Of a stretch of DNA of 44,293 bases, positions 22,077 through 40,754 are shown piece by piece (positions within the stretch are counted from its first letter, which is position 1; the number at the start of each line of letters is the position of its first letter). The DNA is from a virus. The DNA lies in the IMG/VR virus record IMGVR_UViG_3300033153_000547, positions 1 through 44,293 of that record. One strand, given 5' to 3'. The notes beneath the pieces were generated by a model, which worked only from the letters and a program-made list of their open reading frames with translations, did no database searches and was not told the DNA's origin. The position numbers were made by a program, and so were the translations under genes.

Positions 22077-25000
22077 ATGGATGAAGATTTATTAGCTCTA
22101 TACGAAGATATAAAGGACGAGTATAATGTAGGTTCATTTGATGAGTTTAAAACTTACATATCAGACGACGGAAATGCCCAAGCCTTTTATGAGGGTGTAG
22201 TTGAGCCCAATTACAATGTGTCCTCCTTTGATGAATTCAAAGCTACATATATTAGCCCATCGAGTCCGATGAGTGAAAAAAAAAACTTCGATTCGGAATC
22301 TGTATCGGAAGTTGGTTCTTTGGAGCCGCAAGAATCCGTTGAGACAGACTTCCTTGATTACACGCAGGCTGTCAATGCTCCAATGATGCAAGACAGGGAG
22401 CCAATATCAACTGCAGATGCTCCTCAAACTATAGAAGAATTACAAGAAAAGATTCAGGACCCCGGTGCATTCAATCGTCAACCTGAAATGTATTACATTG
22501 GTAGTGAGCAGGTAGACGTTAACCATCCTGACAAAGCAACACGAGTTGCAAATCAAAAGCGAGTATTGAATATGCCTATCCCCTCTGTAGAGGCATTAAC
22601 CACACGAGGTATGGGAATTAGTGAAGCGGTAAGTCAACACTCCGAAGCCGTAAACAAAAGAGCTGAGTTGGCGGCGAGGTATAAAAGAGAAAGATTAGAG
22701 GAGTCCGGAATCAAAGAACAACCCACGTTTCAAGAAGTATTAGATGGTGCTCGACCTACTGTAGAATTACCTGACAACTTTTATGACATTGCCTCCACCC
22801 CTTTAGAGGAAAGAAGTGAAGATGATTTGTTTGCTGCGGAAATTATTTATAATGAAAGAGCAAAAGCAAACAACAGAAAGCAAAAAAAAGAAGCAGGCTT
22901 TATTGAAGTAAACGGAGAGCTTATGGACCCTGAAGCACTCGACGAAGGGTTTGGTTTTGATGCAGCCTTAAACACTCTTACATTTTCAGGCGATAAAGGT
23001 TCCCTATCTAAAGATGGAGTTACTTTGCGTAACGAGTCTGATATGAGAAGTTTATTAGAGAACAAGTTTAAGCAGTATGGTTTTACTGTTAGTGAAGATG
23101 TAATCGGTCAAGACTTTATTGTTATTACAGGACCTGATGGTAGTGAAAAAAGATTTAGTCTTGGGGGAGCAGGAAATGCAAAGTTACAGGCAAGTGCAAT
23201 TAAAAGATTCATAAACAATTCCTATGCCAATGCAGGCTTTACTTTAGAGGAACAGGCTGAGCAAGCGGGTAGGATGGTATCTGATACCGACTTGGTAGGT
23301 ATAGATGACTTGAGTCCTGAAAAGATAATGAATGGAAGGTCTAAGTATGTAACGGCAGAAACGGAAAAACTTTTTCAAGACAGAGAAAAATTAGAGAAGG
23401 TCGGCACTATGCTAACTGCCAAAAGTCAAGACATAAAAAATACAGAGAAAGATATAAACGATTTACTATATTACAATGACAAGTTTCAAAGCCGAGACGG
23501 CAGCATATCTTTTAGAAATTCAGAAGTTCAAAAGGAATACGATAGGCTTACCGAGCTTTATTTAAAACAGGGAAAAGATATAAGGAACTTGGCAGATGCG
23601 GGCGGTTCATTGGAAAATGACTTCAACAAAAAGGCTAAAGACTTAGAGTATTACGCAGGAGAAAGAGCATTGATGCTTGCAAATGCGTGGGACATAGAAG
23701 ACATACCTGCTTTTACAGCGGGTGAGTTTATGCGAGGGGCAGGTAGTGTGGTATCAGGATACACAAGATTAGGACATGACCTGTATTCAAACATCAATAA
23801 TCTTTTTTACAATGAAGGTGATGAGGAATACATCACAGACAAGGAGAGAAAACAGTTTAAGCAGGGCTTAGCAATGACAAGCGAGATGCGAGGCATGAGT
23901 GATATGGATACAGAAACTCAGCAGGCCATACGAGAATCAGGAGGTATAATTACTGAAGGTTTATTTGGACTTGCAGGCTCATTACCTGCGATGTTTACCG
24001 GGCCTGCATCTATTCCTTCTTTTGCTGCAATGTCTATAGATGCGGTGTCTTCTGAAATGGAAAAGATTCCTGAGTTTGCAAACATATCTGAAAATGAAAA
24101 GCTACTACTAACTGTTCCTATTGGTGTAACTGTAGGGGTATTAGAAAACTATGGTTTTAGAAGTGCCCTCAACAACTCTTCTTTAGTTTCTCGTATTACT
24201 ATAAATGCACTTAAGAAATTTGGAGCTCAGAACCTTGCTAAGGCAGGGACCAAAAAAACTTTTCAAGAGATTGTGGAAAGGTCTGCGTTAGGTTCAATAA
24301 AGAAAGCGGGTATACTTACCCTGTCGTCTGCTGCTTCAGAGTTTGAAACAGGGGCTGCTCAGGAATTAGCTGAGGTATATGCAAAGGAGATATATGACGT
24401 GGCTAAAGGCAATAACTTTTTTGACCAAGCAGTAGATTTTCAAAAGGGTGAAATGTGGAATTGGAATCTTACCAAACAAGTATTAAGAGCCGGTGCAGCA
24501 GAAGCTGTTGGTGGTTTTGTTATGGGTATGCCTAATGCTATATCTCGAGCAACAGTTGGAGAGAAACTACCACAGGTTTCTGATATGGGGTTTGACTTAT
24601 TTAGATTGTTAAACAACAGTGAGAATGTAGATAAGACCATAGCGGCACAAAAGGCAAATTGGTATGCTAAAGTAGGTGTAAAAGAGAATCCTGAAACAGG
24701 AGAGGTATATACCAAGAAAGAAGTTGATGATATGTTTAATCTCTACGAAGACGTGATAGGTCAGAGTAAACAAATCAAGGAGGAGTATGGTGCTGAGTAT
24801 CAAAAGAAAATTCTTCAGAAACTTATTCAGAAAAAACAATTAGAGGAGGAGATTGAGGAGTATGCTAAACCTACCACTAAAGAACAGCAGAGACAGGTAG
24901 CTGTAATCAATGAAGATATTGAAGCGTTAACTGAGTTAGCCGAGAAGCAACTTGTAAAAGACGAGGCAAGATATGAGAAGGCTAAGAAGAAAGGTTTTAA

Positions 25001-28000
25001 GGGTGACTTTAAATCGTTTATGACGGGCACCAATCTTGCTGAAGAGATAGCAAGTGGTGTACAAAAAGAAGATGCAGTAGAACAGGCTGAAGACGAGGCT
25101 GTACCTGAGCCTATCGAAAACGTAACCAACGCACAGTTTGTTCAATACCAAAAAGACCTTGAGAAAGGAGAGTTAGATGAGGGAATCAGGGATGGTATAC
25201 TGTCTCGAGTCATAGATAAAGAGCAGGACAATCTTAAACTAACACCTTTACAGCAGCAGATTAAGGAGCAGAACGAATCAAGATACAATGAGATATCAAC
25301 TCTTAAGGAGGCTCAGAAACAAAGAGATGAGGTTGCACAAAAAGAAGCACAGCTTGAGGAACTAAAAGTAAAAGAAGCAGAAGAACAAAAGCAAAAAGAA
25401 TCAGAAGCACAACAGCAAGCTATTGCTACAGAGTTTGAGGAGCAGAGTGAAGAGCAGCAAGTAAAAATGTTGGAGGAAGCTGAGGCTGAACTAATAGAAG
25501 AGAAGGGCCCCGGAAAAAGACGTATGCTTATTGGTAAAAGAGTTGCTCCTGTAGTAACAGAGGAAGAGGTTAGAGCAAGAGCTTTAGAAAATCTTGTAGC
25601 ACAGAAAGAAGTGGCCAAGCAAAAAGCAGAAGAGGTGGCTAAGATTGAGGAGGAAGGTGAAGCAATGGTTGAGCTTGCGGCTCCTATTACAAGAGTAACC
25701 AAGCAGATGAAGCAACAGTTCGAAGATGGAACTATTGCAGAGGAAACTGTAGATGGTATCATATCAAACATCCTACAAAAAGAAGAGCAGGGTAAAAAGC
25801 TTACACCGTTTCAGCAACAACTAAAAGATAAGAACAAAGCCCGATACAATCAGTTGGTATCTGCAGGTACAGTGAGAGCTGAGGCATCAGAACTTGAAGG
25901 GTTGATTCAAGAGGATGAGCAAGCCCCTGATTTTAGAAGAGAAACAACAGACGAAACAGTAGAGGTAGACTCCGAAGGCTACAGAGTTGGATTTGAGAAG
26001 TCTAAAAAAGGTAAACTTTTTGGATACAAAGTTATGACTGTTAACGATAAAGGAGAGTTAGAGTCAGGAGCGGATAGTAGACAAAGACTTGTTAATAAGA
26101 AAGGCGAAGTTCATACGATGCCCGGAGCAGGAATATTCATATCCAATGACCCGAACTATGTAAAGGATTATTACTCTGCAAGAGAAACATCTGAAGACCC
26201 TAAAGAGGTGTTAATAAAATACGAGTTTGATGAAGCGGATATCGAGTCAGGAAAGCTACAGCTAAACGAATCACAACCTGAGATATCCATATCAAAAGGT
26301 AAGGTGGTACAGGTTTTTGAATTAGAGCTTTCTCCTCAAGACCAAGTAGAAAAGATAGTAGAAGAGATAAACTCTAAAGAGTCTCCTAACGTAGAGTTAG
26401 ATATCAGCTCTAATGAGATGACTGCTGAGGGTACTAAGATTGACAAGAAAGGTTTACTGAGTAGACTTAAAAATAAAATACCATTCATTAAGAACTTGGA
26501 CATCATTAAGAATATCCCTGTAGTATTCAACATATCTGACCAACTTACCACGGGTAATGCAGTGAATCCACAAACAGGAAACACAATAGATAAGTTGATG
26601 GGTGGTCTTGGGTTTACAGGTTCACCCGGAAACAGTGGCCTTGCTTGGGCAAGTGTAAGTAAGACAAAGGGGAATGAATTTGTAAATAAAGCTCGTAAAG
26701 CTTATGAGCAGAATAAAGAGGTATTAGAAAAGTTTTGGGCAGCGAACCCTCAGTTTGCAGGACTTGTTCCAATGGTAGTAGTTAAGATGGGTGAGAAGTC
26801 TATGGTTTCTAATGAGGCTGTAATGAGAGTGTTCTTAGATAATCTTACTCAGATTCCTAAAGCAAATCAAAAAAAGGCTTTAGGTATGTTGGTGGAAGAA
26901 CTTGAATCAGTGTTTCCTAAGTTAAAGAAAAACGAGAAGCCCGGAGTTAGAGATTTCATTGAGGCTTTTAAAAAGAAAAAACCAAAGACTTTTAATGAGG
27001 TTCTAAACATAGACTTCTTAAGAGAAAATAATATATCCCTTGCAGCCCGAACTGTACTTATGGACAGGCTCACAGTGGGTTCGGCAAACGAAGCAGGAAA
27101 GAAAAAGGTTCAGCCGGGGAAACCGGGAACTCCAATTACAAAAGCTTTGACGGAAGGCTTGGTGGGTGCAGAAGCAAGTGAGCTTCTTGCTCTTAGTCTA
27201 ATAACAGACACCGTCACTGAGAAGGCTATGGAGAATGTGCCTGCTAACTCTATCATTGCTGTTCAGGGTGTAGAGGTGGCCAAGAAAGATAGCAAGGGTA
27301 ATTGGGTAGAGTCCGGTGGTACAGGCGAGACAACACACCCCAACTACCCCGGAGGTATAAAAGGAAAGACCATAGGTATACTTGAGAATCCTGTGTCGTT
27401 AGCTGATGCTTTTCCTGTAGCCTATCAGCGTGCATTAGAAAGAATCATTGATGCAGATACAACTGTCACAGCTAAAGGTGAACCAAAAGCAAAAACAAAG
27501 AAGTCAATTAAGGATGTACTGTCTAAGGCTTTCTTCCTTTCAGCAGGTATTCCAATGAATAGTTTTATTGGTGCCATATCACGGGGTAAGGTAGACAACA
27601 TAGCTAAGCTTACATCATTCCTGAATGCGGCATTCCCTAATGTACAAATCAGTACAGACCAAGCAACTTTTGATGAGGTCATAAGCTCGGATAAAGTGAA
27701 GCAGTACATACGCAAGGGAGATGTAATATATGGTGTCACTGTGGATGGAGATATATACATAAACCCTCAGGTTCACAACAGCGACTCTGCTTTGTTCAAT
27801 ACTGCTATTCACGAGATGGGCCACGTTTGGCAAAGCTATCTGCTCACTACACCTGAAGGTAAGAAGATATACGATAAAGGGGTAGAGCTTGTTACTGAGA
27901 CTGAAGAGTATCAGAAGCAATTAAAAGTATTCAATGGCAACAAGGAAAGAGCTGCCAAAGAAGCTATGGCTATACTGATTGGTAACAAGGGTGAGACTAT

Positions 28001-31000
28001 AGCGAACGCATCTATAAAAAGTAAATTCAAGGAATGGCTTCTTGGTATGTGGACTTACATCAAAGACAAGTTCAAGATGTCAAAGGACCTTACTGCAAAA
28101 GAAGTTCAGGACCTTACGCTTGATGAGTTCTTAGGAACAGCTTTAGCAGATGTAATGAGTGGTAAACCAATTAAACTGAGCAAGGTACAGCAGAGAGAGA
28201 TGAAAAATCCTGAGGTGCTTTTCAGTAAGGTTGAAGACCCATCACGAATTGTTTCTCGAGGAAGAGAGAATGGATTCTCTGACGCATCTATCAGACAGGT
28301 ACTTAGAGGTAGAGGTTTCTCTGCTGAGGTAATCAACGAAGCTATGACTGTTCAGGTAGACTTAGTCACTACCTTGCCAAGAGCATTTGAAAAGGTAGAG
28401 GGTGGACCTAATCAGGGTAATGAACTTTTCTCTCAAGTAAAAGAAAGACTAAGACAGTTTGCTGTTGCCGGTCCAAGAGGTGGTGTCAAGGGAGATAGGA
28501 AGCGTACAAAAACATACGGTGAAATCAGGCAGAAGGCTCAAGACTTAATGAAGGAGAATGAAATCTTTAAGGCTCAAGCAGAACAGGTACAGCAGGAGTT
28601 ATTGTTGGCTATGGACAGAACCCTTCAGACAAATGCTAATGCAACTGTAGAGGCTCAGATGGCTGCCATAAGAAAGACCTTGAGGGAGCGACGAACTGCA
28701 GAGAAAAATCTAAGAGAGCTTCAGGAAAGTTTACGCAAAGATATTGCTGAAGCACTTCCAAAGAATGACAGATACTCTAAGAGAACTATAAGCAAGATGA
28801 ATGCACTGATTGCTGCGGTAACTGTAGACAATTATCAATCTCAGTTAGAGGAAGTAATCAAGGAGGTATACAAGCAGAAGACCAAGATAGAAAATGCAGA
28901 GATAAAGCGTATCGAAAAACAGATACGAGATACTATCCGAGACAAAAAGATTGGTGTTCGTGAGGGACAAAAAGATTTAAGGAACCTACAAGTAAGATTG
29001 AAAAATTATATTCGATTAGCATTACCACCAAGCAACAAGTATACCCGTGGTGCTGTTACTCGTATGAACGCATTGATTTCAAACCTGAAGGCATCCAACT
29101 ATCAGGATACTATAGAAAAGGTTGAGAAAGAAGTAGAGAGACAGCGAGCTAAAATGAAACGAGACCTCATCAAAGACCTCGTAAAAGAAGTTCGAAAGAA
29201 TGCTCGTAAGAACAGAACTCGTTCAGGTAAAATCAGAGCGAGAGGAAAGGATGCAAGAGGTCAGCTTTACTTTGAGGAACTAAATCCTATACTCAATGCT
29301 ATTGTAAAGGGAGACATTAATACTTTGTTGGACATTATGAATGACCTTGCTGAAAAGAACAGTGAGATAAACCAAGCCTTAGCAAAGGAGCAGAAGGGAG
29401 AGAAGCTAACAACCAATGAAGAGAGGCTGCTTACCCGTGTTCAAGCGTTCGATACGTTTGGGAAAGTACCGGAGATGGAGCTCGAAGAACTACAGCAGTT
29501 ATACGATACAGTATTGGAGATGAAGTCTGAGTCTATTGCAAACCTCAAATCTATACAGGCAGAGAGAAGACAAGTGAGAGCTTCTTTGGAAGACAGAGTT
29601 ACTGAGCAGATTAAAGAAACTAATCCTGAGTTGTTCGATGAAGATGGAGAGTTGTTAGATGAGAATGAACTTGCGGCAAAGAAGGATGAAGTACAGTCTG
29701 AGTTTCAAAAGAAAGGAATCAGGGAAGGATTAAACAAATGGTATACCTCTTCATTTAAGTTTGGGAACATAAAGGAAATGCTTAGAAGTGCGAGAGACTC
29801 AATGCTTCACTTGGGTGCCTTAACAAATATAGCAGATAGGGTTACGGAAGGTAAGTCTGTATTCACGGAAAACATATACCGCAATCTAAATCGTATGGAC
29901 GAGAATAGAAACAGAGGTGTATATAATACTAACAGAAAACTAAACCTGTTGGCCAAGTCTGTTGGTATAATAGATGGTATCAAAGGAGTAAAAAGAAAAC
30001 TTCTTACAGGTAATGCAGGAGGTCTTCACGAGTTTGTAGTAATAAGTAGTAAGAAAGGAACGAAGACTAAAACCGATTTTACTTCTGACCAACTAATGAG
30101 AATCTATGCCCTGTCTTTAAACGAAGTTCAAAGGGCAAAGTTAGAGCGTCAGGGTATTGGACCTGCTGAAATAAAAAGAATCAAAGAAGAAATACTTGGG
30201 CCTGACTTAGTTCAGTTTACTGATAAGGTTGTTGAGTTCTTAAGTGGGGAATACTATGAGCAAGTAAACCAAGTATACTCCGAACAGAATAATATAAACT
30301 TGGGATACATTGAAAACTACTTCCCAACTAAGACCACTCGAAGCAAGGTAGATGCTAAGATGATTGAGGACGGAGACTTCAGTTCAATATTCACGGCAGA
30401 GACTGCTCCTGCTTTTAAGGAGAGAATAGACAAGACCTCTGACATCAATCTAAAAGAGGCAGACTTTATGGGTACTCTTGACAATCACGTCGAGACAATG
30501 GAGAAGTATATGTCCTATGCTCAAGGTCTAAGACAGCTTACAGATTTCTTTAAGATTCCTGCAGTAGATGTGTTATTGGATGAGCTGAATATAAAGCGAA
30601 TGACTAAGTTCTTAATAAACCAAACTGTAAATCCTAACGCAGGAATGAGCCCTGAGAATAAATTAATCAGTGATATAGGTAGCAAGTTTACAGGCTTCGC
30701 ATTATCATTTAAGGCTATACAAATACTTAAGCAGGCTACATCTTTTGTAAACGCATTCGAAGAGTACAGCTACAGGGGTAAAGGGAAAAAGAAAATCCCC
30801 GGCGTGGACGCTATTATGTTTATGGTAGACTTTGGAAAGATGCTTTCGACACTACCGATGGACCTCTTTGGTAAGGGACCTATCAATGAAGCGATGGAAA
30901 TGTCTGCTACATTTAGGAAAAGGGTAGAGCAAGGAATAGAAGGAGATGTATATGGATTGGAGTCGGGTTCTAAAACATTTAAAAGAGCAGACAAGAACTC

Positions 31001-31892
31001 ATCTAAATGGAAGAAAACAAAAGCGGGATTCAAGACCGGTGCTGCATTCCCTACAGTTCTCGGAGACATAATGGGAGTTATGGGTTACATGATTAACTAC
31101 AAACGAAACATTAAGAACGGAATGACAAAGGCAGAAGCGGTAGAGGCTTTCAATGATTACAATGCTACTCAGCAATCAAGGAGAGGTACTGATAAAAACA
31201 AACTTCAGTTTTCCAACAGTGCATTAACGAGAAGCTTTACAATGTTTGGAAGTGTGCTGTTCTTACAGATGAACAAGGTTCAGATGGCAGCATTAAACAT
31301 AGGGCGAGACACAATGAAGTCGGGCAAGTTGGCACTAAAAGGTAAGGTAAAAGAGGCTGCCAAAGCAGCACCTAAATCTAAAGACCTCAGAGCTTTTTAT
31401 TTGAACCTTGCTGTTGCTAACGTACTGTTTGTTATTACTGCCAACATATCCAAGATGATTAATGGTGATGACGATGATAGGGATGAGGTGATGGATAAAG
31501 TAGTTGAAGCAATGTTTGGTTTGAATCAGCTGTATAAGATTCCTTTCCTTGGTCCTGCATTCAGTAGGCACGTTATGGGTAACAGGTATACACCTGATGT
31601 GGTAAACCCATTAGAGCAAGTGATAAGAAAAGTTAAGAAAAAAGCTGATGCAGATGAGAATCCTGTCGTACCAATCATAGAGTTAATAATAGGAGCTCAG
31701 GTTGACCCTGTTATAGGTTTGTATAATGCAGGCTTCGGAGCTGAAGAAGACTTCGAAGATAATATGCAGGACGCCTTAGGTATCTCTAAGTCTTACAGAC
31801 CCGGTAGTGGGAGCTCAGGTAAGAAAAAGAGTAAGGGCTTTGACAGCTTTGACAAGTTCGATAAATTTGACAAGTTCGATAAATTTGATTAG
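22077..31892 (+). CDS. Giant 3271-aa multidomain virion (polyvalent-type) protein
   Basis: 3271 residues, nearly a quarter of the window. Domains I can see in order: two short N-terminal repeats (YNVGSFDEFKTYIS and YNVSSFDEFKATYIS); hydrophobic stretches at about 624-655, 676-694 and 803-822; long charged coiled regions with a duplicated unit (about 1016-1074 and 1203-1260); an ADP-ribosyltransferase-like region at about 1300-1420 (LFGYKVMTVNDKGE, then GIFISNDPNYVKDYYSA); a zincin metallopeptidase motif HEMGH at 1912-1916; a second duplicated unit (about 2213-2270 and 2301-2356); a long helical C-terminal part with a hydrophobic segment near 3107-3128; and a tail of FDK repeats. Such mixtures are known as polyvalent proteins of phages and plasmids, and as T7 gp16-like ejected proteins. 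I saw no RNA polymerase motifs. ART-like assignment is tentative. Confidence 0.75.
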   Translation: MDEDLLALYEDIKDEYNVGSFDEFKTYISDDGNAQAFYEGVVEPNYNVSSFDEFKATYISPSSPMSEKKNFDSESVSEVGSLEPQESVETDFLDYTQAVNAPMMQDREPISTADAPQTIEELQEKIQDPGAFNRQPEMYYIGSEQVDVNHPDKATRVANQKRVLNMPIPSVEALTTRGMGISEAVSQHSEAVNKRAELAARYKRERLEESGIKEQPTFQEVLDGARPTVELPDNFYDIASTPLEERSEDDLFAAEIIYNERAKANNRKQKKEAGFIEVNGELMDPEALDEGFGFDAALNTLTFSGDKGSLSKDGVTLRNESDMRSLLENKFKQYGFTVSEDVIGQDFIVITGPDGSEKRFSLGGAGNAKLQASAIKRFINNSYANAGFTLEEQAEQAGRMVSDTDLVGIDDLSPEKIMNGRSKYVTAETEKLFQDREKLEKVGTMLTAKSQDIKNTEKDINDLLYYNDKFQSRDGSISFRNSEVQKEYDRLTELYLKQGKDIRNLADAGGSLENDFNKKAKDLEYYAGERALMLANAWDIEDIPAFTAGEFMRGAGSVVSGYTRLGHDLYSNINNLFYNEGDEEYITDKERKQFKQGLAMTSEMRGMSDMDTETQQAIRESGGIITEGLFGLAGSLPAMFTGPASIPSFAAMSIDAVSSEMEKIPEFANISENEKLLLTVPIGVTVGVLENYGFRSALNNSSLVSRITINALKKFGAQNLAKAGTKKTFQEIVERSALGSIKKAGILTLSSAASEFETGAAQELAEVYAKEIYDVAKGNNFFDQAVDFQKGEMWNWNLTKQVLRAGAAEAVGGFVMGMPNAISRATVGEKLPQVSDMGFDLFRLLNNSENVDKTIAAQKANWYAKVGVKENPETGEVYTKKEVDDMFNLYEDVIGQSKQIKEEYGAEYQKKILQKLIQKKQLEEEIEEYAKPTTKEQQRQVAVINEDIEALTELAEKQLVKDEARYEKAKKKGFKGDFKSFMTGTNLAEEIASGVQKEDAVEQAEDEAVPEPIENVTNAQFVQYQKDLEKGELDEGIRDGILSRVIDKEQDNLKLTPLQQQIKEQNESRYNEISTLKEAQKQRDEVAQKEAQLEELKVKEAEEQKQKESEAQQQAIATEFEEQSEEQQVKMLEEAEAELIEEKGPGKRRMLIGKRVAPVVTEEEVRARALENLVAQKEVAKQKAEEVAKIEEEGEAMVELAAPITRVTKQMKQQFEDGTIAEETVDGIISNILQKEEQGKKLTPFQQQLKDKNKARYNQLVSAGTVRAEASELEGLIQEDEQAPDFRRETTDETVEVDSEGYRVGFEKSKKGKLFGYKVMTVNDKGELESGADSRQRLVNKKGEVHTMPGAGIFISNDPNYVKDYYSARETSEDPKEVLIKYEFDEADIESGKLQLNESQPEISISKGKVVQVFELELSPQDQVEKIVEEINSKESPNVELDISSNEMTAEGTKIDKKGLLSRLKNKIPFIKNLDIIKNIPVVFNISDQLTTGNAVNPQTGNTIDKLMGGLGFTGSPGNSGLAWASVSKTKGNEFVNKARKAYEQNKEVLEKFWAANPQFAGLVPMVVVKMGEKSMVSNEAVMRVFLDNLTQIPKANQKKALGMLVEELESVFPKLKKNEKPGVRDFIEAFKKKKPKTFNEVLNIDFLRENNISLAARTVLMDRLTVGSANEAGKKKVQPGKPGTPITKALTEGLVGAEASELLALSLITDTVTEKAMENVPANSIIAVQGVEVAKKDSKGNWVESGGTGETTHPNYPGGIKGKTIGILENPVSLADAFPVAYQRALERIIDADTTVTAKGEPKAKTKKSIKDVLSKAFFLSAGIPMNSFIGAISRGKVDNIAKLTSFLNAAFPNVQISTDQATFDEVISSDKVKQYIRKGDVIYGVTVDGDIYINPQVHNSDSALFNTAIHEMGHVWQSYLLTTPEGKKIYDKGVELVTETEEYQKQLKVFNGNKERAAKEAMAILIGNKGETIANASIKSKFKEWLLGMWTYIKDKFKMSKDLTAKEVQDLTLDEFLGTALADVMSGKPIKLSKVQQREMKNPEVLFSKVEDPSRIVSRGRENGFSDASIRQVLRGRGFSAEVINEAMTVQVDLVTTLPRAFEKVEGGPNQGNELFSQVKERLRQFAVAGPRGGVKGDRKRTKTYGEIRQKAQDLMKENEIFKAQAEQVQQELLLAMDRTLQTNANATVEAQMAAIRKTLRERRTAEKNLRELQESLRKDIAEALPKNDRYSKRTISKMNALIAAVTVDNYQSQLEEVIKEVYKQKTKIENAEIKRIEKQIRDTIRDKKIGVREGQKDLRNLQVRLKNYIRLALPPSNKYTRGAVTRMNALISNLKASNYQDTIEKVEKEVERQRAKMKRDLIKDLVKEVRKNARKNRTRSGKIRARGKDARGQLYFEELNPILNAIVKGDINTLLDIMNDLAEKNSEINQALAKEQKGEKLTTNEERLLTRVQAFDTFGKVPEMELEELQQLYDTVLEMKSESIANLKSIQAERRQVRASLEDRVTEQIKETNPELFDEDGELLDENELAAKKDEVQSEFQKKGIREGLNKWYTSSFKFGNIKEMLRSARDSMLHLGALTNIADRVTEGKSVFTENIYRNLNRMDENRNRGVYNTNRKLNLLAKSVGIIDGIKGVKRKLLTGNAGGLHEFVVISSKKGTKTKTDFTSDQLMRIYALSLNEVQRAKLERQGIGPAEIKRIKEEILGPDLVQFTDKVVEFLSGEYYEQVNQVYSEQNNINLGYIENYFPTKTTRSKVDAKMIEDGDFSSIFTAETAPAFKERIDKTSDINLKEADFMGTLDNHVETMEKYMSYAQGLRQLTDFFKIPAVDVLLDELNIKRMTKFLINQTVNPNAGMSPENKLISDIGSKFTGFALSFKAIQILKQATSFVNAFEEYSYRGKGKKKIPGVDAIMFMVDFGKMLSTLPMDLFGKGPINEAMEMSATFRKRVEQGIEGDVYGLESGSKTFKRADKNSSKWKKTKAGFKTGAAFPTVLGDIMGVMGYMINYKRNIKNGMTKAEAVEAFNDYNATQQSRRGTDKNKLQFSNSALTRSFTMFGSVLFLQMNKVQMAALNIGRDTMKSGKLALKGKVKEAAKAAPKSKDLRAFYLNLAVANVLFVITANISKMINGDDDDRDEVMDKVVEAMFGLNQLYKIPFLGPAFSRHVMGNRYTPDVVNPLEQVIRKVKKKADADENPVVPIIELIIGAQVDPVIGLYNAGFGAEEDFEDNMQDALGISKSYRPGSGSSGKKKSKGFDSFDKFDKFDKFDKFD

Positions 31893-33306: not shown

Positions 33307-33831
33307 TTAATGTATGCCATTAGCTATTGCTCTTAATTTTCTCTTAAAGGCGTCTACGTTTTTTTCTGTAACCCTTTCCTTAATTATTTCAAGTAGCGGT
33401 GCATACTTTCCTTGTTTCTCTATAGACGAATGTAAAGATTTATTTTCATTAATCAAAGATTTGTTTTCTATTTTCAATCTTAGTATCTCGTTTCTAAGTG
33501 ATTCTATATTTGTAAAATCAAAGATACTAAAGTTACCATCTTCCTTATAATCAGCAAAGTGCTGACGGCATTCATCGTATCTGAATCGTAGCATAGGGTC
33601 TTGATTAAGGTATATTGAAAACATCCTAAGCGTATGGATTATAGTAGCGTGGTGCTGATTTAAAACTTTAGCAATGTTTACCTTGGAATATCCTTGGTCG
33701 TAAAGTATTTTACACGCAACACTTCTTGCGTCTATAGTAGACCTGTCTCTTCCTTTTCTTTTTACATCTACATTGAAGTGGGTATTTACAATATTAATTA
33801 GTCGATTCTCTAAATGATTATTCCTTTCCAT
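33307..33831 (-). CDS. DnaA domain IV-like DNA-binding protein with coiled coil
   Basis: 174 residues. Residues about 25-70 match the DnaA domain IV pattern: a basic lead (KRKGRDRSTIDARSVACKIL), a turn (SKVNIAKVLN) and a recognition helix HHATIIHTLRMF, comparable with the DHTTVLHA signature of DnaA. A Leu/Asn-rich coiled coil follows at about 110-145 (LRNEILRLKIENKSLINENK-type heptads), then a basic end. DnaA domain IV binds DNA at replication origins; here it is free of the AAA+ part. It may bind the phage origin, regulate genes, or block host DnaA. A second such protein is encoded at 41161-41451. Confidence 0.65.
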   Translation of the reverse strand: MERNNHLENRLINIVNTHFNVDVKRKGRDRSTIDARSVACKILYDQGYSKVNIAKVLNQHHATIIHTLRMFSIYLNQDPMLRFRYDECRQHFADYKEDGNFSIFDFTNIESLRNEILRLKIENKSLINENKSLHSSIEKQGKYAPLLEIIKERVTEKNVDAFKRKLRAIANGIH

Positions 33832-34153
33832 TATTAAATTTAATTACTTTGTTTTCTATTATATAATCTAAGTATGTGTCCACATCTGTTTGCTCAACAC
33901 CCAAGAACACACACATTTCATTTGGTTCATTAATATATTCAAGAAGAAAAAAGAATGCCTCGTCACCAACGTGAGACACTCCTGCTATAACTTGTGACCA
34001 CTCCCTCTTCTCGGGTAATGTCTTTACCTGACTCACAATTTGTGAAGCAATGTTAAAAGCGTGGTCCATTGGTATCTCTTTTATCTGATGGATAAACCAA
34101 TCATCCACATCATACGCAATATTTTCACCCCTTGTATATTTCTGTTGTACCAT
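33818..34153 (-). CDS. Small protein, unknown
   Basis: 111 residues, acidic and mixed helix and strand; FHIQ-type aromatic stretch near residue 20 and WSQVIAGVSHVGDEAFFFLLEYI in the middle. It overlaps both neighbours by short lengths (about 14 and 29 bases), typical of this operon. No motif or family is recognisable to me. Neighbours are nuclease, helicase and DnaA-like genes, so a DNA-metabolism role is conceivable. Confidence 0.6.
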   Translation of the reverse strand: MVQQKYTRGENIAYDVDDWFIHQIKEIPMDHAFNIASQIVSQVKTLPEKREWSQVIAGVSHVGDEAFFFLLEYINEPNEMCVFLGVEQTDVDTYLDYIIENKVIKFNNGKE

Positions 34154-34361
34154 AATGTTTTAGTTCTTTTAATCTATACTCTTGTAATTTAGACAGCTTT
34201 CCCCCCGGTCTTTTGACCTCGCTGAATATAACATCAGAGTTAGGGGGGATAGCAATTAGGTCGGGGATTCCATTCTTATTTGTCTTGATAAGCTTAATAA
34301 CATAATAGCCCTGCTCCTCAAGTTCCTTTATCCTTTTCGTCTGTATCTGCTGTTCCGTCAC
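34125..34361 (-). CDS. VRR-NUC domain nuclease
   Basis: 78 residues forming nearly only the VRR-NUC core. KNGIPDLIAI gives the Asp (Asp34), and IFSEVKRPGGKLSKLQ gives Glu48-Val-Lys50 and Gln60, the PD-(D/E)XK active-site layout of this family. In phages it commonly lies next to a SNF2-like helicase, as here, and probably acts with it on branched DNA. The start is GTG at 34361, 44 bases inside the helicase end; a TATCTTTG box ends five bases before it. No nearby ATG would keep the full domain. Confidence 0.8.
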   Translation of the reverse strand: MTEQQIQTKRIKELEEQGYYVIKLIKTNKNGIPDLIAIPPNSDVIFSEVKRPGGKLSKLQEYRLKELKHYGTTEIYKG

Positions 34362-35811
34362 CTACCAAAGATAATAAATCTCTTTTGAAGTGGCGAACCG
34401 TGTAGTCTTTCTTCTTTGATACTGCTTTGTATATCTCCTGTTCGATTCCACCTACAGAGAAGACCCAATAAACATCGCTCTTAAGCCTATCCTTTGTTGT
34501 CATTCGGTCTCTGCTCTGCCAATAACTTGTAGCACTAAAGTCTATGTTGTAGTATACTAAAGCATCAGCCTGCTTCAGGGATATACCTTCTCTCCCTGAC
34601 ACTATCTGAAGTGCAATAGATTTTTTACTCCTGTTAAAATCGTCAAGGTCAGTGGTCAAGTAGTCGGTCCCATATACGCCCATCAATACCTTGAGCTCAT
34701 GTTTAAACTTATAGAATATTCCTATCTTCTTTCCCTTAAAAGTATCTCTAATGTACTCTGCCTTACTGTCATCCAATGTCATAGTGTTACCGCTCTCAAA
34801 CTTTACCGTGCCTGAATATATCTGATGCAGTTTTGACATAAGCTTTACAGGTGTATCTGCAAGTATCACCTCATCCTTTCCTTCAACCACAAGATTTTGT
34901 TTAAGGTTCTTAGCAATACTATGAACAACGGGCTTCATATCTACAAGGAGTATGTGCTCTTTCGTTTCTACTTTAAAACCTGCCTCAGATTGCGTGTAAT
35001 TTATCGTGTAAGGGGACATCTCCTGAATGATGGTATCATACCCCTTCGAGTAATCTCTAATCGTCATAGAGTTAATTCTTTTTTCGGTGACTTTTACATA
35101 GTCATCACAGAACCTGTAGAAGTTCTTGTACTGACTGAATGGATTGGTTGGTATCCCATATACTTGGTGATACATCTGAGAGTATGACTCCGGAGTAGGT
35201 GTACCTGATAGTAGTATAACTTTACTATGGTTCTTTCGTATCAATTCTTTAACAGCCTTGGCCCTGTTGCTTGGCTTTGGGAATGCTCCCATCGAGTGTG
35301 ACTCATCACATATAATCACATCCCATTTCAAATCAGGAATCTTATGTATAGATTCGTAGTTGATTGTGAATAGAGCAAAGTTTGTAGGACACATCTTGGT
35401 GTAGTCATCACTGATAGAACCTATTGCCTTCTTCTTTGTGAGGAACAGTACGTTATCAACATTCAGTTGTTGACAAATCCCTAAACTCGTAAGCGTTTTT
35501 CCTGTCCTTACCTCCATCGCAAGATACAAGAACCCTCTCTGCTTCACTATCTCAGTTCCTTTAATTATGATTTCTTTTTGGTATTCTCTAAGTTCTATCA
35601 CGTCTTTCTTTTTGTAATATTCTAAACTGTTTTTTATTCTCTGCTTTATATCATCCGGGAAGTTGTGAACAGGAACGTCAACCATTACAGCGTGCTTCCC
35701 CTTCCCTTTCTTTATTTTTTTTGTGAGACATATAACTCTGTGTATGGTTTCACAATAGTCAAACATCATCTTGTTATTATATGCCGGTCTTCTCTTTACT
35801 ACATCCTTCAT
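34318..35811 (-). CDS. SNF2-like SF2 helicase/ATPase
   Basis: 497 residues with clear helicase motifs: Gln/Tyr motif near ELREYQKE (about 73-80), Walker A EVRTGKT (Lys105), Walker B DESH (169-172), motif III LSGTP (201-205), and a C-terminal helicase half with VSGREGISLKQADALVYYNIDFSA and QSRDRM (motifs V-VI). The order and spacing match SNF2-type phage ATPases. These remodel or branch-migrate DNA at forks and are usually paired with VRR-NUC nucleases in phages, as here. It is preceded by AGAAGG seven bases before ATG, one of the few visible ribosome sites. Confidence 0.88.
   Translation of the reverse strand: MKDVVKRRPAYNNKMMFDYCETIHRVICLTKKIKKGKGKHAVMVDVPVHNFPDDIKQRIKNSLEYYKKKDVIELREYQKEIIIKGTEIVKQRGFLYLAMEVRTGKTLTSLGICQQLNVDNVLFLTKKKAIGSISDDYTKMCPTNFALFTINYESIHKIPDLKWDVIICDESHSMGAFPKPSNRAKAVKELIRKNHSKVILLSGTPTPESYSQMYHQVYGIPTNPFSQYKNFYRFCDDYVKVTEKRINSMTIRDYSKGYDTIIQEMSPYTINYTQSEAGFKVETKEHILLVDMKPVVHSIAKNLKQNLVVEGKDEVILADTPVKLMSKLHQIYSGTVKFESGNTMTLDDSKAEYIRDTFKGKKIGIFYKFKHELKVLMGVYGTDYLTTDLDDFNRSKKSIALQIVSGREGISLKQADALVYYNIDFSATSYWQSRDRMTTKDRLKSDVYWVFSVGGIEQEIYKAVSKKKDYTVRHFKRDLLSLVGDGTADTDEKDKGT
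34366..34373 (-). promoter_or_regulatory. Possible internal promoter TATCTTTG before VRR-NUC gene
   Basis: On the minus strand, TATCTTTGGTAG runs into the GTG start at 34361. The layout repeats that of the GNAT promoter at 18854. It lies within helicase coding sequence, so the match may be chance. Confidence 0.35.
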
Positions 35812-35877
35812 ACCTTCTTGTATATTCTAAACTTATATCCAAAGAGATTTAGTTTAAATACTCTTTTCCACATATAG

Positions 35878-36342
35878 TTAATTGTTAAAGGTAAATCTAT
35901 AGTTCGTTTTTGTACTGTCTTCTATGTGACTCATTGTCATTATGTAAGAGCCATTCTCTTTTATCACATCCATAAACTCTTTGTACTCAACGCCTTCGAA
36001 GTATATCATACCGTCAAAACAAAAAGCCTCAACCGACCTCATCTCTCCTGAGGGCTGCTTGATTATGGCCCATTGAAATGTTTCTTGTTTCCATACGGCT
36101 TCTTTATTTTTTCCATACGGATAAACTGTGATGATAAATGTTTTGTCTATGAGGTCGTGCTCTAAAAAATAACTACACGATTTACTTTTCTTTTTACCTC
36201 TACCGAATTTACCAATGGAAGTTTGGTGTAGAAATATTTCACCCGTCTCCATTCCATTCTCGTCCACATAATCTCCTACCTCCCATTGAGAGTAGGCTGT
36301 CACCGATAGCATCACTGATGCAAATAAAAATAATTGTTTCAT
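35878..36342 (-). CDS. Small secreted protein, unknown function
   Basis: 154 residues. The N-terminus MKQLFLFASVMLSVTAYSQW is a classical Sec signal peptide: two-residue positive start, a hydrophobic core and probable cleavage before Gln19, a form common in Flavobacteria. The mature part is basic then beta-rich (FIITVYPYGKNKEAVWKQ, SYIMTMSHIEDSTKTNYRF) with two Cys (about 55 and 107) that could pair in the periplasm. It lies between primase-helicase and helicase genes but can have no direct part in DNA replication if secreted. A role at the envelope, such as blocking other phages, is possible. I know no family. Confidence 0.7.
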   Translation of the reverse strand: MKQLFLFASVMLSVTAYSQWEVGDYVDENGMETGEIFLHQTSIGKFGRGKKKSKSCSYFLEHDLIDKTFIITVYPYGKNKEAVWKQETFQWAIIKQPSGEMRSVEAFCFDGMIYFEGVEYKEFMDVIKENGSYIMTMSHIEDSTKTNYRFTFNN

Positions 36343-36352
36343 TGTATTTGAT

Positions 36353-38776
36353 TTATAGGTTTAAATTTCTCTGTGAGTTTATCTCATCAGGTCTTTTCAT
36401 TCTCATCCATTTACCTGTGGCATCACGCCCCTCCTGAGGGGATGCTCCGGTGTGGTATACAGCATAAGCCACAAGCCACTTGTTGAATTTTATTCTTGAG
36501 ATAGACATCTTTGCCCTTGGTGCATAGTCAGGATACTCTGAAATAAAATCAAGGTAACAGTCTGACATTGTAATCTTGTAGTCTACCGCAAGTCTATCGT
36601 TAGCCTGAGCACCGTTGATTAATCCACACCACTCAATAAAATCATGAGAGGTTTCTGCAGATAGTTGCCTGACTTTAAGGTTTACGAACTTGCTTTCTAT
36701 TAGTCCTGTGTTCAGGTATCCCTGCAAGCAAGACACCATATAGTTGTCAAACTCACACCACTCATCGTCGTTCCAATCTCCAAACATTAACTTACCAAAC
36801 TCATCGAAAGGTGTAAAGTTTTTGTTGTAGTGTTGGTGTAGTTCAAGTTCCCATTTGCGTCGTGCAAAACTATTACCCGCTCCCTTGATGGCATAGTTGG
36901 TAGTGATGGCAATCTTAGGTGACTTGCTGAATGGTATCTTGATTGCATCTTTGTTCTTCTTCTCTAAGGTCAGACCTTCAGTAACAACGCTAAACAATCT
37001 TTCAAACTCAAAGTGTTTTTTTACATCGTCGAAGACAAGAACCTGAGTGTCTGCACTCACAAGCTGATATGCAAATGAACGCTCGAATGCAAATGACTTT
37101 CCATCAATGGTCACCACCTTCTTCATCTTGGATAGTGCATTCATAAACAATCCTTTTCCGGTACCTCCTTCAGGGTTATCTGATATCACCTCGTCATTCA
37201 GAATGATTGCCGGACAGTAGGATAAGTTCTTATATCCGTGCATCATAAACCCAATGGTTGATTCCATTGAACTAACTCTGTCCTCTTCACTCTTGCATAT
37301 ATTTGATATGAACTTTTTAAAACTAAAGTCTTTGCTTACATTACAGGAGTTGAAGTTCCTATTTATAACGTGGTCCTTCCATACATAACCACCTAAGTCT
37401 AAGTAATCAAGTGTGGTTATATCATCCTTTGTAATCTTTACAGCACAGTTTAGGTAGTACAAGTACGATGCGTTCTTGGTATCCTCTATAAAGTATATAT
37501 CTATAGTTGATAGCAGTGTAAGAAACTCCTCCCTAAAGAATCTTGTTTGGTCAGCGAAGTAATTGTATATGCTGATGTCATCAAGTTCTATTAGGTAGTT
37601 CAAGATGAAGTCCTTGATACTCTTCTCATCGGTATGGTCGATGAGGTTGTTTGTAACCTTGACAAAGATATAATTCTTTCCACCTTCAGGACAATACTTA
37701 TAGAATCCATTGTCTTCCAAGAACTGCTTGAACAGGATGTGGGTAATCTTGATTACTCCCTTTTCGGTCTTGGACCAAAATTGTTTCTCTTGATTCTCTT
37801 CGTCTACTCTTGTGAGCACTGACTCAATAGTCTCAGAGTCAAGCTGAGAATCTGCTAACTGACTCCGGATTTCTTTTTTTGGCACACCTCTTCTAAGCTT
37901 TGCTTTGACTGAGTTCATTCGGTCCTCATCTTCGTAATACTTGGTACCAAAGTTTTGTGTATTGGCATACGCTGACTCAATGGTTCTGATTATCTCTCGC
38001 TCAGAGAAGTCTGAAGATATGTATCTATTGAGCACATACTTAGCGAGGGAGCGGTTGATTCCATAGTCGTTGAAAGCAGCTGCCAATACATAGCAGTTAT
38101 GGTTCCGTTGCCCTTCAACCATAGGATACTTTTTCTCCCACCACTTCTGAAGTATGTCAACTATTTTATTCTCATCAGTGATTGGTATTGTCAGTGCGTC
38201 TCTATACTTATGCTTCTCTTCGTAGGTCCTCTCGTCAATCCTGTCCCATATACTTGAGTTCTCATTGGTATATATCAGTGCATCGTAAGACTCGTAGCAC
38301 ACACGGGAAATATTCTTACAGGTTATATCAAAGTGAGCATTGTTAAAGTGATTCTTTAGTGCATTGAAATAGTTAACGTGGTTGTCCACATCCTGTGGTA
38401 TCTTCACCAATACTTTAAGCCCCTGACCTGATGGAGATATAAACACAGAGTATACATACTTGTCTCGTGTCATCTGCTCCTTGTCCTGAAGCATATCTTT
38501 TTTCTTTTCGTATCCATCGAAGTCCAAGCAAATCAATCCGCTATGCTCCTGAATAGAAGAGTCGTTTCTCTTTACAAACTTTCCTGAGAAACAAATAGCC
38601 GGTAACTCTTTCTTGAGTTCGTTCCTTTGTGCCTTTACTTTTTCTGCTCGTATTCTTTTTACAAGTTCCTTGTTCGCTCCCTCTTTTATCCTATCTAATA
38701 TTTCACTTACAGGTCTATGGAATGGAGTGTCCGTTTCTTTAATGTTTTTGAATATTGTTATTGTATAATCTGTCAT
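36353..38776 (-). CDS. Primase-helicase: BT4734/VirE-type N-terminus plus SF3 helicase
   Basis: 807 residues. The N-terminal section has ICLDFDGY (about 83) and VYSVFISPSGQGLKVLVKIP, the hallmark of the BT4734/VirE N-terminal domain, which is found in Bacteroidota elements and resembles the primase-polymerase fold (catalytic acidic pair DFD). A middle region has helical PriCT-like features with HNCYVLAAAFNDYGI. The C-terminal SF3/D5-type ATPase has Walker A PEGGTGKG (Lys541), Walker B VLVFDDV (Asp583-Asp584), and PKIAITTNYAI followed by an arginine-finger region SFARRKWE. It would make primers and unwind DNA at the origin, and host polymerase would extend. Leader is AC-rich (ACTAACACTAACAACA before ATG). 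Confidence 0.85.
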   Translation of the reverse strand: MTDYTITIFKNIKETDTPFHRPVSEILDRIKEGANKELVKRIRAEKVKAQRNELKKELPAICFSGKFVKRNDSSIQEHSGLICLDFDGYEKKKDMLQDKEQMTRDKYVYSVFISPSGQGLKVLVKIPQDVDNHVNYFNALKNHFNNAHFDITCKNISRVCYESYDALIYTNENSSIWDRIDERTYEEKHKYRDALTIPITDENKIVDILQKWWEKKYPMVEGQRNHNCYVLAAAFNDYGINRSLAKYVLNRYISSDFSEREIIRTIESAYANTQNFGTKYYEDEDRMNSVKAKLRRGVPKKEIRSQLADSQLDSETIESVLTRVDEENQEKQFWSKTEKGVIKITHILFKQFLEDNGFYKYCPEGGKNYIFVKVTNNLIDHTDEKSIKDFILNYLIELDDISIYNYFADQTRFFREEFLTLLSTIDIYFIEDTKNASYLYYLNCAVKITKDDITTLDYLDLGGYVWKDHVINRNFNSCNVSKDFSFKKFISNICKSEEDRVSSMESTIGFMMHGYKNLSYCPAIILNDEVISDNPEGGTGKGLFMNALSKMKKVVTIDGKSFAFERSFAYQLVSADTQVLVFDDVKKHFEFERLFSVVTEGLTLEKKNKDAIKIPFSKSPKIAITTNYAIKGAGNSFARRKWELELHQHYNKNFTPFDEFGKLMFGDWNDDEWCEFDNYMVSCLQGYLNTGLIESKFVNLKVRQLSAETSHDFIEWCGLINGAQANDRLAVDYKITMSDCYLDFISEYPDYAPRAKMSISRIKFNKWLVAYAVYHTGASPQEGRDATGKWMRMKRPDEINSQRNLNL

Positions 38777-39375: not shown

Positions 39376-40134
39376 TTATATCTCGTCCCTGACGTAGTAA
39401 TTCTTTATATCCACAGTTGCTTCTTCAGAAAAGAATTTATGGTGCACCTTTATTGCTTGGTGCATCTTGTCCTGTCCTCTCTGATAGAAGTCATCGTTAC
39501 CTGTGAACATTCCCATTCTACCTGTCTGCTTCTCAATGACTAAGAACATCATTGGTTTACCGAATAGTTCTCTATAGATGAATGCTTGACTATCGTAGTT
39601 GTACTTTCTTGCGTTCCATTTAAAGTCATCTATACTCGACGTAGTCTTTAGGTCTATCACATAGTCATTATGTATGACGTCTGCCTTTCCTTTCCACTTA
39701 GTCCATATAGATTCACCATTTAAAACTGCGTTACCGTAATCCATAACACTTGGCTCTTCGTATGTATTGCCTTTGTGATATATGAGTTCGAAGAAGTCAA
39801 GGTTGCCTTTCATTCTTGATACAAGATTCTCTATGTTATCTGCTTCTTTCTTTAGTAGCAACACCTCAAGGTTCATATCAAGACAGGCTTCTTTGTATCC
39901 CTTTGTGTTACGACTTGCGAAGTCTACGATGTGAGTTTCTTTTGCCTTCTCCGGTTCAAGAATCAGTTGATGAAAGTATCTACCCTCTGCAAAGTTCTTG
40001 TTGTCGGGACGTGATACCCCGAAGTCTTCGGGGTTCTTTAGCAGTGTTCCAATGTCTGAGTTGGATAGGTACTGCTTACCTACCCCTCCGTAATACTCTT
40101 GGTCATTACGGAGTAGTTCTATTACGTCGCTCAT
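39376..40134 (-). CDS. RecE-like PD-(D/E)XK exonuclease
   Basis: 252 residues. The conserved GRYFHQLILEP (about 51-61) gives the early His; KGKADVI (Asp152) and YVIDLKTTSS (Asp161, Lys163) give the PD-(D/E)XK core, and YDSQAFIY (about 180-187) the Gln/Tyr motif. This is the pattern of phage exonucleases of the RecE/exonuclease VIII-like group, which degrade one strand from DNA ends. It starts at a TAATG overlap with the annealing protein gene, the usual partner. Together they act in phage recombination and repair. Confidence 0.82.
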   Translation of the reverse strand: MSDVIELLRNDQEYYGGVGKQYLSNSDIGTLLKNPEDFGVSRPDNKNFAEGRYFHQLILEPEKAKETHIVDFASRNTKGYKEACLDMNLEVLLLKKEADNIENLVSRMKGNLDFFELIYHKGNTYEEPSVMDYGNAVLNGESIWTKWKGKADVIHNDYVIDLKTTSSIDDFKWNARKYNYDSQAFIYRELFGKPMMFLVIEKQTGRMGMFTGNDDFYQRGQDKMHQAIKVHHKFFSEEATVDIKNYYVRDEI

Positions 40135-40754
40135 TATCCTGTAATCTTTTTGATTTCCTTCAGTTGAGCCTGAGTCAGGGTATACTTTGCCTCTATGTTC
40201 GCAACAAGTTGATTGTAACCCATCTGCTTGTTAGCTGTAACATACATCACAAAGTCTTCCCATTTACCTTTAGGTATTCCCGGTAACTTAGGTGACTTGT
40301 TCTCAGGTTTTTTCTTTGGGATTTCTTTTGTTTCAGATGAGTTAATGTCTGATAAATCCTCTGCGTTCTTCCACCATAAACTGATTCCAAGTCCGTGCAT
40401 TGCAATAGCCTTTGCAGTTGCTCTTTGAATGGTCTTGTTCACATCGAACGAAGACATCTTGTCTACGGATATAGATTTATTACGGTAGTCCATTACAGGT
40501 AGCATATCAATGTGCTCTTCCCCTTCTACAGTAACACCCACCTTGACGTAGGCTGTATGCCCATCGGTAAAAAAGTTAAGTCCTGTGTGGTCGTGCTCAT
40601 ATATAGTACGAGTTGCATTCGGATATGTTTTTTTTATTATACCCCAAGCTACTGCCCACGATAGATAATCCATTCCTCCTTTCTTTTCAACGTAATTAGT
40701 AACGTCGATTGCTGACAGTGTTTCGAACACTGATTTCTTTTTAGCGTTTGCCAT
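40134..40754 (-). CDS. DUF1071/Sak3-type single-strand annealing protein
   Basis: 206 residues. The opening KKSVFETLSAIDVTNYVEKKGGMDYLSWAVAWGIIKKTYPNA is the DUF1071 signature (YLSWA-W), and the central DYRNKSISVDKMSSFDVNKTIQRATAKAIAMHGLGISLW fits its conserved part, including the phrase RATAKAIAMHGLG. Members are single-strand annealing proteins that pair with phage exonucleases. After residue 130 a Lys/Pro-rich linker leads to a small C-terminal helical domain. The gene is coupled to the exonuclease by a one-base stop-start overlap. Confidence 0.82.
   Translation of the reverse strand: MANAKKKSVFETLSAIDVTNYVEKKGGMDYLSWAVAWGIIKKTYPNATRTIYEHDHTGLNFFTDGHTAYVKVGVTVEGEEHIDMLPVMDYRNKSISVDKMSSFDVNKTIQRATAKAIAMHGLGISLWWKNAEDLSDINSSETKEIPKKKPENKSPKLPGIPKGKWEDFVMYVTANKQMGYNQLVANIEAKYTLTQAQLKEIKKITG

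What the first reader, a model, noticed from the sequence alone, without database searches (positions are those of the whole stretch)
35878..36342. Secreted protein inside the replication operon
A gene with a clear Sec signal peptide sits between primase-helicase and helicase genes. A secreted protein has no place in replication, so it may be an early-expressed envelope factor, for example excluding other phages or countering a periplasmic defence.
Basis: partly seen in the sequence, partly recalled or inferred. Interest (0 to 1): 0.6.

Follow-up and report, generated by a model that had tools for sequence, protein, structure and literature searches.

The report
Phage-made exported protein, probably blocks rivals
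A virus of marine Flavobacteria-like bacteria carries, in the middle of its DNA-copying genes, a gene for a protein that the host cell exports; relatives of that protein sit beside the 'stay dormant' switch of unrelated dormant viruses, which suggests that it keeps rival viruses out of an infected cell.

Summary
ORF 35878-36342 (-), 154 aa, has a textbook Sec/SPI signal peptide (MKQLFLFASVMLSVTAYS|QW, obeying the Bacteroidetes Q-rule). It lies 10 bp after a primase-helicase gene and 66 bp before an SNF2-type helicase gene. Conservation with purifying selection shows that it is a real gene. No Pfam, PHROGs, NCBIfam, PADLOC or PDB family covers it. From related loci I assembled an undescribed family: one exported all-beta domain of about 135 aa (motif W...YVDEFGDxTG...GxFSNSATxNS; model pLDDT 93). 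In the window's phage clade the gene is an optional cassette: L002-L004 swap it for another small gene, with homology breaking within 5 bp of both its ends. Other phages carry it in other early or nucleotide-metabolism slots. In six loci the domain directly follows a Cro/CI-type repressor-like gene; in four of these an integrase lies close by. That is the place of known superinfection-exclusion lipoproteins (Ltp). About 1% of sampled Bacteroidota genomes carry copies. Best explanation: an early-expressed periplasmic superinfection-exclusion protein, working like T5 Llp or Ltp but of a separate family. Function, timing and target are inferred, not shown.

The parts
35878..36342 (-). Gene of the exported 154-aa protein (the finding)
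   Evidence: homologues; profile match 2.8e-43 (profile includes this sequence)
36289..36342 (-). Sec/SPI signal peptide, residues 1-18; predicted cleavage S18|Q19 (Q-rule)
   Evidence: sequence; residues 1-19 are 89-95% identical between the window and relatives whose mature parts are 47-81% identical; Q-rule PMC5837995
35881..36288 (-). Mature exported domain, all-beta, about 135 aa from W20
   Evidence: AlphaFold2 model mb20cd713a4d6, mean pLDDT 93.3 on 15-sequence alignment A6
35873..36340 (-). Replaceable cassette: homology with L002-L004 stops at 36340 and resumes at 35873
   Evidence: blastn breakpoints; other gene content at this slot
36353..38776 (-). Primase-helicase (upstream neighbour, same operon)
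34318..35811 (-). SNF2/ResIII-type helicase (downstream neighbour, same operon)
39376..40754 (-). Exonuclease (39376-40134) and Sak-like annealing protein (40134-40754); in L097 and L098 the exported gene sits directly after the exonuclease-position gene instead
33818..34153 (-). 111-aa ORF whose homologues lie, repeated, beside the exported gene in MAG contig L087 (possible partner, weak lead)

Best explanation
The gene is an optional exclusion cassette (a moron) carried in the early operon. Because it lies inside the replication transcription unit, it should be made soon after DNA entry. The product is exported by the host's Sec pathway, cleaved before Gln19 and released as a small soluble beta-sandwich protein in the periplasm. 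There it would bind an envelope component used by incoming phages (receptor, DNA-entry pore or incoming tail protein) and stop a second phage from infecting or injecting. Temperate phages appear to use the same domain, tethered as a lipoprotein or secreted, encoded directly behind a repressor-like gene so that it can be made in the lysogen. Shown by sequence: gene, signal peptide, family, cassette behaviour, repressor/integrase context. Predicted: fold and periplasmic location. Inferred: early timing, exclusion, target.
For: Same gene at the same slot in window, L083-L086, L096 and L099; a different early slot in L097 and L098; other phages' early or ribonucleotide-reductase modules in L100, L113-L120 and L136-L140. 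Clean swap with L002-L004; absent from most of 80 primase relatives. Export signal in all 35 family members. In six loci (L101, L102, L104, L109, L110, L133) the domain directly follows a co-oriented HTH/CI-type gene with gaps of about 4-226 bp, and in L101, L102, L104 and L133 an integrase or serine recombinase is adjacent or separated by one gene; only 5 of 74 ORFs in these loci match HTH_3 and 5 match HTH_26. Precedents: Ltp, gene 2 next to int, transcribed in the prophage and blocking DNA injection; Glo of K139, a soluble periplasmic exclusion protein (PMC3952083); T5 Llp, an exclusion lipoprotein of a lytic phage expressed early (PMC9586334); Rtp45 (PMC12685063).
Against: No functional or expression data. 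The window copy has no lipid anchor, unlike Ltp, Llp and Rtp45. Carriers L103 and L111 are not next to a repressor-like gene. Lone chromosomal copies outside any visible prophage exist (L091/L157, L105/L158, L092/L159, L153/L156), so the domain may have a host role. Several HTH assignments are below Pfam's gathering score. No structural match names a function.
Confidence: 0.5

Rival explanations
1. Periplasmic counter-defence: the exported protein blocks an envelope-based host defence or stress response that would otherwise stop the infecting phage itself.
For: Early-operon position and patchy presence suit an anti-defence gene; the segment FSNSATTNS has diverged in window/L083 (FGRGKKKSKS), as an arms race might produce.
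Against: A position behind a repressor-like gene in prophage-type loci suits protection of the lysogen better than help for an infecting phage; lone copies in host chromosomes are hard to explain as anti-defence.
Confidence: 0.15
2. A captured host envelope protein giving a host-physiology or metabolic benefit during infection or lysogeny, or a near-neutral passenger.
For: Chromosomal homologues in Bacteroidota genomes, including L091, 46% identical to L086 and placed among phage copies in the tree.
Against: Chromosomal copies are rare (6/399, 3/395 and 4/395 genomes) and the four regions read have no common neighbours, which looks like acquisition; repeated presence next to repressor-like genes suggests a phage-related role.
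Confidence: 0.2
3. A lysis or virion-associated exported protein, or a protein serving replication at the membrane.
For: Sits inside the replication operon.
Against: It is replaceable, absent from most relatives with the same primase and helicase, exported, and not in the structural or lysis part of the genome; no phage structural family matches.
Confidence: 0.05

Closest known systems
Ltp superinfection-exclusion lipoprotein of Streptococcus thermophilus phage TP-J34
   Same: Small exported phage protein; scattered 'moron'; gene beside the integrase in the lysogeny module, much as for L101, L102, L104 and L133; active part outside the cytoplasm
   Different: No Pfam match to any Ltp-type domain; all-beta rather than Ltp's repeat domain (Ltp's fold recalled, not compared here); the window copy has no lipid anchor and lies in an early replication operon
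T5 Llp (and Rtp45) exclusion lipoproteins
   Same: Made by lytic phages, early for Llp; small periplasmic proteins that change an outer-membrane receptor
   Different: Llp and Rtp45 are lipoproteins (Rtp45 about 6 kDa); the window protein is a 135-aa domain without lipid anchor; no sequence link seen; receptor unknown
Glo of Vibrio phage K139
   Same: Soluble periplasmic exclusion protein (as described in PMC3952083)
   Different: Not compared by sequence here; from a prophage of Vibrio cholerae
Chromosomal Bacteroidota homologues of the same domain (L091, L092, L094, L105, L153)
   Same: Same domain with export signal, E down to 2.3e-40
   Different: Lone host genes, some with an additional N-terminal region (L092, L156); function unknown

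Membership tests
Exported protein via Sec/SPI of Bacteroidota (Q-rule) | n-h-c signal peptide with small residues at -3/-1 and Gln at +1 | tested here: met
   A16-Y-S18|Q19; Q after the signal also in L083-L087, L091, L096-L100 and others; rule from PMC5837995
The YVDEFGD/FSNSAT exported family assembled here | W...YVD[ED][FN]G..T, G.F, C-terminal Y.F strand, export signal | tested here: met
   alignments A2, A5, A6; the window copy keeps WEVGDYVDENG and YRF but has lost FSNSAT
Ltp-type superinfection-exclusion lipoproteins | Lipobox cysteine at the cleavage site | tested here: not met
   No lipobox in the window copy; present in L101-L104 and L111
Ltp-type superinfection-exclusion lipoproteins | Ltp repeat domain | tested here: inconclusive
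   No Pfam match; no direct comparison with Ltp was made
Ltp-type superinfection-exclusion lipoproteins | Gene in the lysogeny module beside repressor and integrase | tested here: not met
   Window copy is in the replication operon; met for relatives L101, L102, L104 and L133
Superinfection-exclusion proteins in general | Expression blocks infection by a second phage | not testable with these tools
   needs a phage assay
T5 Llp-type receptor blockers | Lipid-anchored (lipobox) periplasmic protein | tested here: not met
   No lipobox in the window copy
T5 Llp-type receptor blockers | Binds the periplasmic face of an outer-membrane receptor | not testable with these tools
   needs binding or structural work
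Known anti-phage defence proteins (PADLOC) | Match to a PADLOC model | tested here: not met
   No match for the window copy

The most novel reading that the evidence does not exclude
An undescribed family of exported beta-sandwich exclusion proteins is shared by lytic and temperate phages and by some host chromosomes: lytic phages deploy it from early replication operons as a soluble periplasmic protein, temperate phages tie it to the repressor as a lipoprotein or secreted protein, and hosts keep captured copies.
Probability: 0.4. Interest if true: 0.65.

Novelty: new variant of a known kind. Interest (0 to 1): 0.52.

Why it matters
How flavophages keep rivals out of an infected cell is little described; none of the papers listed by the few searches made here was seen to describe an exclusion protein of Bacteroidota phages (a limited search, mostly by title and abstract). 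The family has no database model, yet it turns up repeatedly in phages and, rarely, in host genomes. One small protein would make the question directly testable in laboratory flavobacteria, and repressor-linked versus replication-linked copies would show one domain serving both lysogeny and lytic infection.

Tried and rejected
Direct searches with the window protein found nothing in phage records, in viral contigs with single-sequence patterns, or in Pfam, PHROGs and NCBIfam; the family appeared only after adding L001/L086 and then mature-domain profiles. A weak proheadase match of L086 (E 0.03, 14.5 bits against a cutoff of 59) was rejected. L089 was a chance match: a 21-residue similarity in an unrelated phage. 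The first structure model, with 5 sequences, had pLDDT 66 and was not used. PDB and BFVD fold searches gave no match with E<=0.001, and the best VIA Z was 6.5 (CrdA; then FetP and other beta-sandwiches), below the tool's own caution line, so no function is read from the fold. No PDB sequence match was meaningful. Phage and plasmid collections gave nothing for L101, and phages nothing for L102. A replication function was rejected because the gene is exported and dispensable across relatives. A last viral scan added no new carriers. Unusual conservation of the signal-peptide DNA (third-position identity at identical residues 13/16 against about 36/61 in the mature part) was noted, but too few sites exist to claim a second function.

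Full report
What is there. The ORF at 35878-36342 (-) encodes MKQLFLFASVMLSVTAYSQWEVGDYVDENG..., 154 aa. The signal peptide is of the ordinary Sec/SPI kind, with the glutamine after the cleavage site that most Bacteroidetes SPI substrates have (PMC5837995). It is 10 bp behind the primase-helicase gene and 66 bp before a helicase gene, all on one strand with Sak annealing protein, exonuclease, VRR-NUC and DnaA-C-like genes. The window is a virus record. Its primase has a 72%-identical match in an uncultured Caudoviricetes record and partial 41%-identical matches in the Flavobacterium 'elemo' podophages.

A real gene. Four viral contigs carry it at the same position between primase and helicase: L083 at 82%, L084-L086 at 53-55% identity. 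Where dS could be estimated, dN/dS is 0.16-0.38. Residues 1-19 are 89-95% identical between the window copy and these relatives, while the mature parts are 47-81% identical. That is unusual, because signal peptides normally drift faster than the mature protein (general knowledge); upstream bases and silent sites in the leader are also rather conserved, but the sites are few.

An optional cassette. Among 80 loci with a related primase, the primase-helicase slot is empty in many, holds other small genes in others, and holds this gene in L001 (the same contig as L086). L002-L004, whose primase and helicase are about 86-88% identical to the window's, carry a 72-87-aa ORF without an export signal instead; DNA similarity stops at window 36340 and resumes at 35873, that is within 5 bp of the gene's ends. 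A profile of the family finds no second copy in the window and only L001 among L001-L080. L069 has two lipoprotein-like ORFs in the same slot that the profile does not match.

A family without a name. Profiles built from these copies reached 35 members that I aligned. All start with a hydrophobic export signal; L101-L104 and L111 have a lipobox by the simple pattern, and L092 also ends its signal with a possible one (FSC). The domain reads W....YVDEFGDxTG...GxFSNSATxNS...IYEYG...IK.PSGE...Y.F. Pfam, PHROGs, NCBIfam, PADLOC and PDB sequence searches gave no usable match. AlphaFold2 with 15 sequences gives a confident all-beta domain (pLDDT 93.3, pTM 0.86). Foldseek and VIA-align show only generic beta-sandwich similarity.

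Where relatives live. (a) Same clade, same slot: window, L083-L086, L096, L099. (b) Same clade, different slot, upstream of a small gene and the primase: L097, L098. (c) Other phages, early or nucleotide modules: L100, L113-L118 and L120 beside a RusA-like ORF (named by eye), and L136-L140 between the two ribonucleotide reductase subunits. (d) Repressor-associated: L101 (HTH ends about 4 bp before the lipoprotein; a membrane-protein-like ORF and then a serine recombinase follow), L102 (HTH, lipoprotein, tyrosine integrase), L104 (HTH, lipoprotein, serine recombinase), L109 and L110 (CI-type HTH, then a secreted copy), L133 (HTH 11 bp before a secreted copy, integrase convergent). Some of these HTH matches are below Pfam's gathering score. 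In these six loci 5 of 74 ORFs match HTH_3, 5 match HTH_26 and 2 match CI_repr. If about one ORF in ten were HTH, finding it directly upstream in all five separate lineages would have odds near 1e-5; this is a rough figure of mine, the sample was not designed for the test, and L103 and L111 do not show the pattern. (e) Chromosomes: 6 of 399 genomes of the order, 3 of 395 of the class and 4 of 395 of the phylum sample have a match, partly the same genomes; the four regions read have a lone gene without recognisable prophage neighbours. L087, a short MAG contig, holds a copy whose mature domain is 86% identical to L086's, next to tandem homologues of the phage's 111-aa protein.

Interpretation. 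Exported, dispensable, carried in early operons by some phages and next to the repressor in others: this combination fits superinfection exclusion better than replication, lysis or structure. Published cases cover both halves. Ltp is encoded next to int, transcribed in the prophage, and blocks DNA injection from outside the membrane, and Glo is soluble and periplasmic (PMC3952083). T5 Llp is made early by a lytic phage and disables the receptor from the periplasm (PMC9586334); Rtp45 does so with LptD (PMC12685063). None of this shows what the window protein does: export is predicted, early timing follows from the operon only, and no target is known. I put exclusion at 0.5, periplasmic counter-defence at 0.15, host-type cargo at 0.2.

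Membership and novelty. It may work like the exclusion proteins named but should not be filed as an Ltp or Llp protein: the lipid anchor was tested and is absent in the window copy, and no sequence link was found. It is best called a new variant of a known kind: an unnamed exported family with exclusion-like genomic behaviour.

Noticed in passing
L087:799-2491: In a Flavobacteriales MAG contig (end gene: glycosyltransferase), a copy of the exported gene follows three tandem homologues of the phage's 111-aa ORF (window 33818-34153) and precedes two similar ORFs of another unknown family; this may be a phage-derived island or a misbinned fragment.
   Followed up: partly
L064:7773-9210: The helicase reading frame runs from the DEAH box into an intein-like segment (CFLGNTLIDGIKIKDIKLG...) followed by an endonuclease-like ORF, before the rest of the helicase.
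   Followed up: no
window 34318-35811 compared with L083-L086: The helicase has about 70 extra N-terminal residues in the window and L002-L004 that are missing in L083-L086, where it starts directly after the exported gene or other small ORFs.
   Followed up: partly
L069:9059-11045: Two lipoprotein-like ORFs not matched by the family profile sit in the same primase-helicase slot of another relative, so the slot may have received exported proteins more than once.
   Followed up: no
L118:5433-5837 and L120:5433-5837: The exported gene is followed by a second ORF with a signal peptide (MKNLLLIGMLLMSVASFSQ...), a possible exported pair.
   Followed up: no
window 36286-36357: The signal-peptide coding region and the bases just before the start codon are more conserved than the mature part, also at silent sites; this could be a recombination anchor or a translation-start constraint.
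   Followed up: partly
window 22077-31892: A single 3271-aa ORF fills almost 10 kb at the end of the plus-strand gene block; probably a giant polyvalent virion protein (not analysed).
   Followed up: no
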